From NCBI RefSeq assembly GCF_036320965.1, contig NC_092264.1:12084394-12148393 (forward strand): a DNA stretch of 64,000 nt. Reading direction: 5' to 3'. Shown here piece by piece: positions 13,961-30,290 of this stretch. The position numbers were made by a program, and so were the translations under genes. Source of the stretch: Panulirus ornatus. Taxonomy: Eukaryota; Arthropoda; Malacostraca; Decapoda; Palinuridae. The notes beneath the pieces are model-generated. The model was given only the letters and a program-made list of their open reading frames with translations. It did not search any database and had not been told where the DNA came from. Within the stretch, counting starts at the first letter, position 1, and the number at the start of each line of letters is the position of its first letter.

Positions 13961-14294
13961 GAGGAGGACTCACACTCACCTCATGGGTCCAGAAGCAGGA
14001 CTCACACTCACCTTATGGGTTCAGGAGGAGGACTCACACTCACCTCATGGGTTCAGGAGGAGGACTCACACTCACCTCATGGGTCCAGGAGGAGGACTCA
14101 CACTCACCTCATGGGTCCAGGAGGAGGACTCACACTCACCTCATGGGTCCAGGAGGAGGACTCACACTCACCTCATGGGTCCAGGAGGAGGACTCACACT
14201 CACCTCATGGGTCCAGGAGGAGGACTGACACTCACCTCATGGGTTCAGGAGGAGGACTCACACTCACCTCATGGGTCCAGGAGGAGGGACTTAC
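13961..14294 (-). repeat. 32-bp minisatellite abutting a dipeptidase 5' splice site
   Basis: About ten copies. In the gene's sense strand each unit holds CCTGGACCCATGAGGTGAGT followed by GTGAGTCCTC. It begins within ~15 bp of the authentic donor of exon 14295-14358 (CCAG|GTAAGTCCCTCCTCCTGG). Each unit has its own AG|GTGAGT, a near-consensus donor. Because 32 is not a multiple of three and the unit lacks stops, all forward frames are open; these ORFs are not genes. Confidence 0.9.
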
Positions 14295-14358
14295 CTGGCC
14301 GTAGGGAGTAAGTCCGCGTGTGTTGGGTGGGTGAGGGCCGGTCTCCGAGCACTCAGCC
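14295..14358 (-). CDS. DPEP1-like: Membrane dipeptidase (DPEP family), internal exon C
   Basis: This 64-bp exon encodes the end of a Trp codon started in the previous exon, then A and ECSETGPHPPNTRGLTPYGQ. The family equivalent is the segment after THSCNTPWAD, ending LSPFG(Q/R), which leads to the VVxEMNRLG helix. The acceptor is CCACCGTGCAG at 14359-14360, preceded by a CT/CCA-repeat pyrimidine tract and CACTAAC as a likely branch site. The donor is CCAG|GTAAGT at 14293-14294. Phase fits: TG from exon B plus G here makes Trp, and the exon ends in phase 0. No following exon was found below 14290, so the rest of the gene, with the two zinc-binding His residues, lies beyond the window. Membrane dipeptidases are zinc-dependent, GPI-anchored hydrolases of dipeptides and leukotriene D4; that function is inferred from family. 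Confidence 0.85.
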
Positions 14359-14360
14359 CT

Positions 14361-14430
14361 GCACGGTGGAGGAGGTGGAGGAGGTGGAGGTGGAGGTGGA
14401 GGAGAGCGGGAGAAGTGAGGGTTAGTGGCG
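14361..14430 (-). promoter_or_regulatory. Polypyrimidine tract made of CTCCAC repeat, with branch-site candidate
   Basis: On the minus strand the acceptor of exon 14295-14358 is preceded by a pure pyrimidine-plus-A repeat of CTCCAC/CTCCTC type (about 14366-14405), with CACTAACCC at about 14427-14419. The simple repeat serves as the pyrimidine tract. Confidence 0.6.
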
Positions 14431-14509
14431 CGCCTCTTGACACGAAGTCATACAAAAACAAGCAGTTCCTCATCCACCTTGAACTGCATTCTTTGTCCCC
14501 TTAACATAT

Positions 14510-15390
14510 TTGCATAAACCACTTACAACTTGAGTTTACATAAGTCATCGTTAGTATACCGTGTGTATTTGCATAAGATATTGTTAGTATAGATTTGCAT
14601 AATTCATTAATAGTGTACATTTGCCTAAACCATTGTTAGCGTTCAATTTTAGTATACATTTGATTAAACTATTGTTAGTATACATTTACCTAAGTCATTG
14701 TTAGTATACATTTCTAAGCCATTGTTAGTATACATCTACCTAAGTCATTGTTAGTATACATTTCTAAGCCATTGTTAGTATACATTTCTAAGCCATTGTT
14801 AGTATACATTTCTAAGCCATTGTTAGTATACGTCTACCTAATTCATTGTTAGCGTACACTTACCTAAGTCATTGTTAGTATACATTTACTTAGTTATCGT
14901 CAGTATACATTTTCCTAAGTCATTGTTAGTATACATTTCTAAACCATTATTAGTATACATTTGCCTGAGCCATGATCAGTATACATTTACCTAAGTCATC
15001 GTCAGTATACATTTCTAAACCATTGTTAGTATACATTTACCTAAGTCATCGTCAGTATACATTTTCCTAAGTCATTGTTAGTATACATTTCTAAACCATT
15101 ATTAGTATACATTTGCCTAAGTCATCGTCAGTATACTTTTACCTAAGTCATTGTTAGTATACATTTCTAAACCATTATTAGTATACATTCACCTAAGTCA
15201 TCGTCAGTATACATTTACCTACGTCATTGTTAGTATACATTTCTAAACCATTGTTAGTATACATTTCTAAACCATTATTAGTATACATTTACCTACGTCA
15301 TTGTTAGCATATATTTCTAAACCATTATTAGTATACATTTACCTACGTCATTGTTAGTATACATTTCCCTAAGACACTGTACGTATATAC
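14510..15390. repeat. ~26-bp minisatellite
   Basis: About 33 variable copies of TTGTTAGTATACATTTACCT plus AAGTCA, with a shorter variant using TTTCTAAACCA. It sits inside the dipeptidase intron. Confidence 0.9.
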
Positions 15391-15478
15391 TTAGTCGTCC
15401 ACAGAGGCTCGTCAACCTCCTGTGCTCCCGACCCGTATCTACGACCTTTGCCAGGGTGAGTGTGGAGGGCTGCAACAT

Positions 15479-27625: not shown

Positions 27626-27639
27626 TTGTACTTAGGAAA

Positions 27640-27980
27640 TTCACTTAACAATTAATCTCTTCTATGGCAATACCATGTGCAGTTCAATACACTGAGATGA
27701 TAGGATAAAACATCCATGTTTTCTCCTCAACTTCCACATCATCTGAAAGCGACAGCTCTCGAGGAACATTAAAATAAAAGGAAGAAAAAATAAGTACACA
27801 TTGCTTGAAGTAAGGAAGGCAAATATGGAAACTGGAAATAATGAATTGAAAAACTTATCTCTGCAATCTTACGACACTGTGCTATACGGTGTTGTGTTGA
27901 CTGGCGATCTTTTCAGTTCGGAGTATCATGTCTCAAAGCCGAGATGATAGACAGATTATGACGTATGTATATTCATTCCA
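27640..27980. other. Unassigned sequence
   Basis: A/T-rich; no gene or repeat recognised. Confidence 0.4.
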
Positions 27981-27984
27981 TACC

Positions 27985-28200
27985 TATTCGCCATTTCCCG
28001 CATTAGCGAGGTAGCGTTATGAACAGAGGACTGAGCCTTAGAGGGAATATCCTCACTTGGTCCCCTTTCCGGTTCCTTTTTTTTTGAAAAATCAAAAAAC
28101 GGGAGGGGAGGATTTCCAGCTCCCGCTCCCTCCCCTTTTAGTCGCCTTCTACCACACACAGGGAATACGTGGGAAGTATTCTTTCTCCCTTTTATATTCC
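27985..28200 (-). mobile_element. SINE-A copy 4, near full length
   Basis: On the plus strand: TATTCGCCATTTCCCGCATT, AGCGAGGTAGCGTTATGAAC, GGGAATATCCTCACTTGGTC, CCTTTTAGTCGCCTTCTACC and GGGAATACGTGGGAAGTATT. This is the reverse of the copies at 2105 and 13130. Confidence 0.8.
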
Positions 28201-28214
28201 CAGTGTCATCTGGG

Positions 28215-29880
28215 TGGGTTCTGTCACGCTGTTTCCATCACTTTTTCCAATCTAATGGTACTATAGCTGTCTCTCCCGTCAGACAAAGCAGCTCCCTTTG
28301 GTTCCCGTTTCACCTCTAACCCCACCTTGGATGACTCTAACATTCCTTCACCCCTGATGCTCCTCTTACTAATCCTATACCTCTCTCTTCGGACTGTCCG
28401 AAAAGCGCTTCTTTCTCTGGCCACAAGCGAGGCTTATGGTCCTGATGGCATCTATCCTAGGGTACTGAAAGAGTGTGCCTCTGAACTTGTACCTGTGCTT
28501 ACTCGCCTGTTCCGTTTCTGTTTAGAATACAAAACTTTCCCTTCTCTATGGAAACATGCATGGATACATCCCATCCCCAAAATACGGTGACCGTTCTAAC
28601 CCCTCCAACTATCGTCCTATTACTTTGACATCTACCATTTCCAAAGTCTGTGAATCCCTTCTCAACTCCCATATCCCTAAATATCTCGAAAATCACAGTC
28701 TTTTGTCTGATCACCAGTATGGCTTGCCTAAGGTGAGATCCACTAGTGATATTCTTTCGTATCTTGCCAATGTCTGGTCAACATCTCGGTAGGATTTAGG
28801 GAGTCATGTGTAGTTTCCCTTGACATATCTAAGGCTTTTGATTGGGTAGGGCATCGGGGTCTCATCTCTAAGTTTCCTTATTTTGGCCTCCCTCCCTCAC
28901 TTTGCTCCTTCATATCTAGCTTCCTCTCTGGCCGATCTAACTCTGTAGTTGTTGATGGATTAGCCGCCCCCTTTTTTCCACCAACAGCGGTGATTTCCTC
29001 TCTTCCCCAAATATCATATGCACTCATACACTGACGACGCTTCATTCATCCACACCCTTCAATTCTACTCCCTCTTCTCTCACTCGATCTGCATCTCGTC
29101 TTGACACAGCTCCCTCAGTGAACTCACACTTGGACAGGATATCTCATTGGGGTAGACAAAATCTTGTTCAGTTTAATGCCTCCAAGACATAGTTTCTACT
29201 CGACTCTATCAAAAACTACTCACAGCTCTCGTCTTTCCTTTGATGATTCTGTAATTCCACCTCTTGACTCAACAAACATACTTGGTAATACCGTAACATC
29301 CAATCTTTCTTGGAAACCTCATATTACAAGAATAGCTAAGTCTGTCTTTAAAAAAAAACAGGATGTCCTGTTTAGATATTGTAACTCGTCTTCTGAACAT
29401 TTGCTCCGTTTATACAAGGGATTGAGTCATTCTTGTATGGAGTACTGCTCTCCCATTTTGGGTGGTTCTAGCTCTGCATCCTTACTTGACAGAGTTTAGT
29501 CGAAAGCTGTCCGCCTTATAAACTGTCCCAGGCTAACTTACAAACTTGACCCCCTTGTCTTGCGTCGTAGCGTTGGTTTACTTTGCTCCCGAGAGCTGGC
29601 TGCTTGTGTGCCCCTACCACTAGTTTGACCTTACGATACTCGGCAAGCTGCTGCGTCACACGATTGTTGTGTGGCCATCAGCAACTCAAGGGTGGGCCGT
29701 TTTGATACCTGCTTCTTCCCCTACACGAACTGTCTACCTTCTCATATCTTTCCCAATAACTATGACCTGGCACATTTCAGAAGACAGTTTTTCACTTTCT
29801 CAAAAATTCACAAATACTTTCCCATGTCACTGTCTATTACGCTTATCTTACAGTGGTCGTTTTTCTGTGGACGTAATCTC
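28215..29880 (+). pseudogene. Jockey-like LINE copy 2
   Basis: A second 5'-truncated copy of the family at 8652-10650. It shows FGSRFTSNPTLDDSNIPSPL, SEAYGPDGIYPRVLKECASE, FPSLWKHAWIHPIPK, SNPSNYRPITLTSTISKVCE, VVSLDISKAFDWVGHRGLIS, FLSGRSNSVVVDGLA, LDSTNILGNTVTSNLSWKPH and SHSCMEYCSPILGGSSSASL. Frameshifts occur near 28587 and 28790, and a stop is present at 29497. A ~100-bp deletion removes the INxGVPQGS/YADD region near 28985-29040. It is dead. Confidence 0.82.
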
Positions 29881-30290
29881 AAAACATGAAGGATATCCAA
29901 CTTCTTACTGCTCTTAATTTCCTGCCACATGTTCTTCAAATTCGTTCTTCTGTATTCTGATGTCGAGGGTATGTTGTCGCTAATCTGAGATCTTGTATTA
30001 ACTTCTAACTTTATGATGTTGTAGGCACGACTTGCCGGAGCCTCACCTGCCTCACAGGAGATGGTCAGATCGCTGTGGTGAGTAGGACTCTGTCAAGAAT
30101 GTTGCTGCCTCTTGTTGGTGTAGTAACCAGATGGCTCAGTGTTCTCAGTTACGTTAATCTATTTTCCATCATGATCACCCGTTAAGGTAATCAAATTAGG
30201 ACTGGCTGTTAGATTAACGGATGATCATATTTTTTGTTAAAATTTTTGTGTTTTTGTATTTATGGTTATATTTTTCTCTTGTTTTATAGA
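29881..30290. other. Unassigned sequence
   Basis: No feature recognised after the LINE end. Confidence 0.4.

What the first reader, a model, noticed from the sequence alone, without database searches (positions are those of the whole stretch)
13961..30000. Every dipeptidase donor in the window abuts a junction-like minisatellite
Seen: three of three donors (14294, 20619, 26796) border arrays whose units contain a donor (GTGAGT, GTAAGT, GTATGG), and one of three acceptors has its own repeat. Two use a 32-bp and one a 35-bp period. Inference: a process that starts tandem duplication at exon-intron borders, perhaps linked to transcription, R-loops or nicking at splice junctions, may work in this lineage. 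This is the strongest candidate here for an undescribed phenomenon.
Basis: partly seen in the sequence, partly recalled or inferred. Interest (0 to 1): 0.9.

Follow-up and report, generated by a model that had tools for sequence, protein, structure and literature searches.

The report
Splice-junction minisatellites in a dipeptidase gene
Short DNA repeats in this dipeptidase gene were built from copies of its own exon-intron borders, a quirk already known from lancelets and one human gene; in the unrelated genes sampled here they sit at borders about as often as their general abundance predicts.

Summary
All three dipeptidase donors in the window (introns begin at 14294, 20619, 26796, minus strand) border minisatellites (32, 32, 35 bp), and so does one of three acceptors (26930). 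At three of these four junctions the unit holds real exon sequence (11, 14 and 27 nt), so the founding duplication spanned the junction. At 14294 the unit holds a donor-like motif but no exon.

It is not undescribed: amphioxus "mirages" have the same structure, and the human ABCA7 VNTR starts at a donor GT.

Are junctions preferred? Minisatellites cover 18% of 294 kb examined. With arrays collapsed to one unit, dipeptidase junctions carry 11 arrays of 60 (2.5 expected). Without the window gene, which was noticed because of its arrays, it is 7 of 54 (2.3 expected, P 0.01). Without three more that may share ancestry with other counted arrays, it is 4 (P 0.21). In unselected genes it is 2 of about 54 (1.6 expected), both on one Gbeta-like exon. 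Donor-like motifs are not enriched in 106 other arrays.

Best reading: ordinary, very dense, length-variable minisatellite formation, tolerated at junctions because extra copies land in the intron. A modest junction preference is not excluded. The whole-genome test could not be run.

The parts
26797..26929 (-). Dipeptidase (Peptidase_M19) exon, here called E1
   Evidence: tblastn with recalled human DPEP1; Pfam M19 on 26796-26932; junctions by motif
25312..26810 (-). 35-bp array at the E1 donor; unit = last 14 nt of the exon (CAGGTCACCAGCAG) + first 21 nt of the intron (GTATGGAAGACCCACACTTCC); about 45 copies
   Evidence: TRF; minus-strand reading; GT kept in 45 of 45 copies
26903..27618 (-). 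Array at the E1 acceptor; copies contain the intron end CCCCACAG followed by the first 27 nt of the exon (TTCTGGTCAGTGTACGTGCCGTGTGAG), some with small changes
   Evidence: TRF; alignment of the exon start with one array copy; tblastn hits of QFWSVYVPCE inside the array
20620..20770 (-). Dipeptidase exon E2
   Evidence: tblastn, Pfam M19, junctions
20135..20630 (-). 32-bp array at the E2 donor; unit = last 11 nt of the exon (CACACACCCTG) + 21 nt of intron head (GTAAGTGTATAGCATCACCCT); 15.5 copies
   Evidence: TRF
14295..14358 (-). Dipeptidase exon E3
   Evidence: tblastn with the joined window exons, weak hit with DPEP1, joined Pfam hit, junctions
13961..14287 (-). 32-bp array ending 8 bp from the last exon base of E3; unit contains GTGAGTGTGAGTCC, resembling the true intron head GTAAGTCC, but no copy of the exon tail
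   Evidence: TRF
15480..18837 (.). Intronic 32-bp array (105 copies) in the intron between E2 and E3, not at a junction; shown for comparison
   Evidence: TRF

Best explanation
These are mirages: minisatellites whose founding tandem duplication spanned an exon-intron junction. Shown: the sequence examined is very rich in minisatellites (119 arrays, 18% of 294 kb), and some units contain the exon tail plus the donor, or the acceptor plus the exon head. Inferred: duplications start at roughly random places through ordinary slippage or unequal exchange. Inside exons they are removed by selection. At a junction they survive, because the outermost splice site still yields the normal exon and every extra copy lies in the intron. 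The array then grows and shrinks on the intron side and stops at the exon. Donors tolerate this better than acceptors because they need less intron sequence. The copies are by-products, possibly with occasional inclusion of one unit in the mRNA, as in ABCA7.
For: Exon sequence in the units at three of four window junctions with arrays. The same anatomy at the paralogue donor C16a E2 and at one exon of an unselected Gbeta-like gene (L047: 64-bp unit with about 20 nt of exon head at the acceptor, 40-bp unit at the donor; junctions placed by eye from the reading frame). Array density in control loci, exons included (8 arrays in 27.2 kb), is of the same order as in the dipeptidase blocks (119 in 294 kb). 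In unselected genes 2 of about 54 plausible junctions have junction arrays against 1.6 expected. No donor enrichment in 106 other arrays (25 with 7 or more of 9 matches, shuffle mean 25.0). Copy number differs between the window and a near-identical second copy on C66 (35-bp array 1499 v 2632 bp; 32-bp array 496 v 784 bp). Arrays within 12 bp: donors 7 of 20, acceptors 3 of 19. Literature: amphioxus mirages (passages of PMC3087553, PMC3902484).
Against: Dipeptidase junctions outside the window gene still show 7 of 54 against 2.3 expected (P 0.01), and pooled with the unselected genes 9 of 108 against 3.8 (P 0.016) before dropping arrays that may share ancestry. Array edges fall within 20 bp of 9 of 39 junctions against 3.6% of positions (P 8e-6, window gene included). 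The array at 14294 and several paralogue arrays (C16a and L032 E1 donor, C21 E1 donor and acceptor, C21 E7 donor) lie next to the junction without exon sequence recognised in the unit. No transcript data, so correct splicing is assumed.
Confidence: 0.7

Rival explanations
1. Junction-driven duplication: transcription-linked nicking, R-loops or splicing-linked breaks at exon-intron borders start tandem duplications, so arrays are seeded at junctions above the intronic rate.
For: 11 of 60 dipeptidase junctions against 2.5 expected, 7 of 54 against 2.3 without the window gene; 7 of 20 donors; two arrays on one exon in an unselected gene.
Against: Much of the excess comes from the gene that prompted the search and from arrays that may share ancestry (4 remaining, P 0.21). 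Unselected genes are near expectation (2 of about 54 v 1.6). The other 106 arrays show no donor enrichment. Three paralogue genes have no minisatellite of 50 bp or more within 12 bp of the edges tested: C16b 0 of 6, C42 0 of 10, C6 0 of 4.
Confidence: 0.16
2. Barrier effect only: intronic arrays expand until they meet an exon, so array ends pile up at junctions without the junction ever being part of the founder.
For: Coverage near junctions is not raised (10 of 39 within 20 bp against 21% of all positions), while edges at junctions are (9 of 39 against 3.6%). Fits 14294, C21 E1 and C21 E7.
Against: Exon-derived bases in the units at 26796, 20619, 26930, the C16a E2 donor and the L047 acceptor require a founder that spanned the junction.
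Confidence: 0.08
3. The repeated donors are maintained because they help or regulate splicing (redundant donors, or unit-by-unit inclusion).
For: GT is kept in 45 of 45, 14 of 15, 24 of 24 (C66) and 10 of 11 copies. In human ABCA7 single units of a donor-containing 25-bp VNTR can be retained, and its length raises exon 19 skipping (passages of PMC5954066).
Against: Whole units are about 93% alike, so GT conservation does not stand out. Paralogue C16b has consensus-like donors at the same junctions without arrays. 32- and 35-bp units would shift the frame if included once (inference). The amphioxus authors report no interference with splicing.
Confidence: 0.06

Closest known systems
Amphioxus 'mirages' (Adh3, globins BflGb6/BflGb9, TnC, PGBD5)
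   Same: Minisatellite-like tandem duplications spanning 5' or 3' exon-intron boundaries; many copies with AG/GT signals; different copy numbers in two haplotypes; units of 10-160 bp (passages of PMC3087553 and PMC3902484).
Human ABCA7 intron 18 VNTR
   Same: 23.7 reference copies of a 25-bp unit beginning exactly at the exon 18 donor GT; strongly length-variable; immediately flanks the exon (passages of PMC5954066).
   Different: As described in the passages, the array starts at GT; an exon tail in the unit is not mentioned. Effects on splicing were measured there, not here.
Intron gain by tandem genomic duplication (Rogers model)
   Same: Tandem duplication of a segment holding AG/GT splice signals.
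   Different: There a new intron arises inside an exon; here existing introns of an M19 gene carry arrays at their ends, and no new intron was shown. The model is known here from a passage of PMC3087553 and a search listing.

Membership tests
Mirage (amphioxus type) | Tandem repeat spans the exon-intron boundary | tested here: met
   Met at 26796, 20619 and 26930 with 14, 11 and 27 nt of exon in the unit; not met at 14294, where the array ends 8 bp from the last exon base
Mirage (amphioxus type) | Copies retain AG/GT splice signals | tested here: met
   GT in 45/45, 14/15 and 10/11 copies; CCCCACAG plus exon head in the acceptor array
Mirage (amphioxus type) | Copy number differs between alleles | tested here: inconclusive
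   Window and C66 copies differ (1499 v 2632 bp; 496 v 784 bp), but whether C66 is the other allele or a recent duplicate is not settled (several colinear stretches at 92-98% identity, other stretches, among them arrays and repeats, lower)
Mirage (amphioxus type) | Does not disturb normal splicing | not testable with these tools
   No transcript data; E1, E2 and E3 as joined by me give one M19 match
ABCA7-type donor VNTR | First bases of the array are the authentic donor GT | tested here: inconclusive
   Arrays at 26796 and 20619 begin inside the exon and include the GT; the array at 14294 stops 8 bp from the last exon base and only resembles the donor
   11/60 v 2.5 expected with the ascertained gene, 7/54 v 2.3 without it (P 0.01), 4 (P 0.21) without arrays that may share ancestry; unselected genes 2 of about 54 v 1.6

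The most novel reading that the evidence does not exclude
In this lineage tandem duplications start at exon-intron junctions two to four times more often than elsewhere in introns, especially at donors, because of a junction-linked break or transcription effect, so that introns keep growing from their ends.
Probability: 0.16. Interest if true: 0.75.

Novelty: new member of a known kind. Interest (0 to 1): 0.35.

Why it matters
In the papers seen here, mirages are described gene by gene in amphioxus. A large, repeat-rich genome with arrays at many junctions could let the question 'do tandem duplications favour splice junctions?' be answered by counting. It also warns gene annotators that exon ends, donors and acceptors can be copied dozens of times beside the real ones.

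Tried and rejected
Chance adjacency alone was rejected for 26796, 20619 and 26930 because the units hold exon sequence. The simple coverage null (10 of 39 within 20 bp, 21% expected) was set aside because exons cannot lie inside arrays; the collapsed-coordinate null was used instead. In one search the numbers of junctions and hits per gene were typed by hand. Of its 58 junctions, the C16a E5 acceptor was not located by motif and counts as no array; some C42 and C6 edges are tblastn edges, not proven splice sites; C66 was left out as a second copy of the window gene. The three arrays dropped for possible shared ancestry are the C16a E1 and E2 donors and the L032 E1 donor; their ancestry was judged by eye. 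Arrays under 50 bp were not counted; short two-copy repeats lie at or within 4 bp of the C16a E6 and C21 E6 donors and the C6 E1 acceptor.

Control genes: 33 exon hits; 23 donors and 31 acceptors looked plausible by simple rules, and edges with poor sites were dropped, hence 'about 54'. The rule picked a wrong acceptor copy for L047, which I placed by eye. Flanks of about 300 bp were seen in most control loci. Arrays 45 and 61 bp from exon hits (L045, L054, L059) were not counted, nor an AT dinucleotide repeat 13 bp from the L056 hit. The 106 'other' arrays still include the C66 copies of the window's arrays and the C21 E1 arrays.

Not answered: family searches PF01244 and PF00069; the tandem-donor pattern count; the RACK1+PP2A+GNAI query. 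So there is no whole-genome rate. The species was not identified. One search (phage records) found nothing.

Literature searches. No title or abstract start listed there reports junction-spanning minisatellites in a crustacean; this covers only the listed rows from an open-licence library. Seen: PMC3087553 (abstract and passages), PMC3902484 (one passage), PMC5954066 and PMC3152781 (passages; the latter has no occurrence of 'splice'), PMC12120130 (abstract and outline); all others only as listings.
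Full report
WHAT IS THERE. The window lies on contig C41 (positions 12084394-12148393) of a 2.65 Gb genome. On its minus strand are three exons of a membrane dipeptidase, Peptidase_M19. Their joined translation matches the Pfam profile over positions 50-164 of 319. TRF finds 35-bp, 32-bp and 32-bp arrays there, and a complex array with 27- and 78-bp units at the first acceptor.

ANATOMY. Read on the transcript strand: at 26796 the unit is 14 nt of exon tail plus 21 nt of intron head. At 20619 it is 11 nt of exon tail plus 21 nt of intron head. 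At 26930 the copies carry the intron end CCCCACAG plus 27 nt of exon head, identical to the true exon start in the copy aligned. At 14294 the unit holds a GTGAGTCC that resembles the true intron head GTAAGTCC, but not the exon tail. So the first three founders spanned the junction; the fourth started at or just inside the intron. The donor GT is kept in 45 of 45, 14 of 15 and 10 of 11 copies, but units are so alike overall that this shows no selection.

RELATIVES. A DNA search with exon 2 gave seven places, the window included, and one with exon 1 gave seven, the window included. C66 carries a near-identical second copy (several colinear stretches at 92-98% identity, others lower) with arrays of other lengths: 2632 v 1499 bp and 784 v 496 bp. 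It may be the other haplotype or a recent duplicate. Paralogue C16a has a 32-bp junction-containing array at the same E2 donor and a 19-bp array at the E1 donor; a nearby exon 1 on C16 (L032) has a similar 19-bp array of at least 1.5 kb at its donor. C21 has arrays at the E1 donor (9 bp away), E1 acceptor (12 bp), E4 acceptor (unit contains the AG) and E7 donor (12 bp). C16b, C42 and C6 have no minisatellite of 50 bp or more within 12 bp of the edges tested.

UNSELECTED GENES. Protein probes for Na/K-ATPase and Gbeta and for VCP and GSK3 gave 37 and 40 matches. Of these I fetched 23 exon hits and 10 more (nine and one). One exon of a Gbeta-like gene (L047, C69:9563900-9564690) has junction arrays on both sides: a 64-bp unit carrying about 20 nt of exon head at the acceptor, and a 40-bp unit at the donor. 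The other 32 exon hits have no minisatellite within 20 bp; one (L056) has an AT dinucleotide repeat 13 bp away. Of 66 edges, 54 looked like plausible splice sites.

IS THE JUNCTION SPECIAL? Minisatellites (period at least 10, length at least 50) cover 18.3% of 294 kb, 119 arrays. Two nulls were tried on 39 junctions. By coverage, 10 of 39 lie within 20 bp of an array against 21% of all positions (P 0.30); by array edges, 9 of 39 against 3.6% (P 8e-6). Because an exon can only lie beside an array, I prefer arrays collapsed to one unit. In one search this gives 10 of 58 junctions against 2.45 expected (P 0.0002); 6 of 52 against 2.24 without the window gene (P 0.027); and 4 (P 0.19) after dropping two C16a arrays that may share ancestry with the window's. 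Adding L032: 11 of 60 against 2.5 (P 7e-5); 7 of 54 against 2.3 (P 0.010); 4 (P 0.21). Unselected genes: 2 of about 54 against 1.6. Pooled without the window gene: 9 of 108 against 3.8 (P 0.016), or 6 (P 0.18) without the three arrays that may share ancestry. In 106 other arrays, donor-like 9-mers are at the shuffled level (25 v 25.0 at 7 of 9 matches; 3 v 3.7 at 8; 0 v 0.3 at 9). The sample cannot exclude a two- to four-fold preference and does not establish one. The whole-genome pattern count stayed unanswered.

WHAT IT IS. The structure is the 'mirage' of amphioxus: minisatellite-like duplication of 5' or 3' exon-intron boundaries, with haplotype length differences and no interference with regular splicing reported (passages of PMC3087553; PMC3902484). 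In human ABCA7 a 25-bp VNTR begins at the exon 18 donor GT; single units can be retained, and exon 19 skipping rises with length (passages of PMC5954066). The likely mechanism is general array formation tolerated at junctions, with selection keeping the exon intact. The steps 'random start', 'tolerated' and 'by-product' are inference; spanning founders and the length difference between the two copies are shown.

LIMITS. No RNA was available. Exon ends in control genes are approximate. The dipeptidase paralogues are related, so their junctions are not independent.

Noticed in passing
L008-L009 (C66:1-20000) against window 14178-26920: A near-identical second copy of the gene begins at the very first base of contig C66, with an error-like exon 1 at the contig end; it may be an unpurged haplotype or a recent duplicate.
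   Followed up: partly
window 1-14294 and 30 kb to its left (L024-L026): No dipeptidase exons 4-7 were found downstream of E3 by tblastn, although C16a and C21 have all four within about 4 and 10 kb of their E3; intron 3 is very long or this copy is truncated.
   Followed up: partly
L047 (C69:9563900-9564690): A Gbeta-like exon with arrays at both junctions, found among unselected genes.
   Followed up: yes
L032 (C16:3114924-3115057 with flanks): A further dipeptidase exon 1 about 107 kb from C16a, with a 19-bp array of at least 1.5 kb running from its donor to the end of the fetched stretch.
   Followed up: partly
window 15480-18837 and 18986-20021: Very long minisatellites (32 bp x105 and 13 bp x80) fill much of the intron between E2 and E3; the 32-bp period recurs with a different unit.
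   Followed up: no
window 22612-23466 (minus) and 28400-29900 (plus): Reverse-transcriptase-like reading frames, recognised by eye only; probably retroelement remains.
   Followed up: no
window 14365-14402: A GGTGGA-type repeat lies just upstream of the E3 acceptor (6 bp from its last intron base).
   Followed up: no
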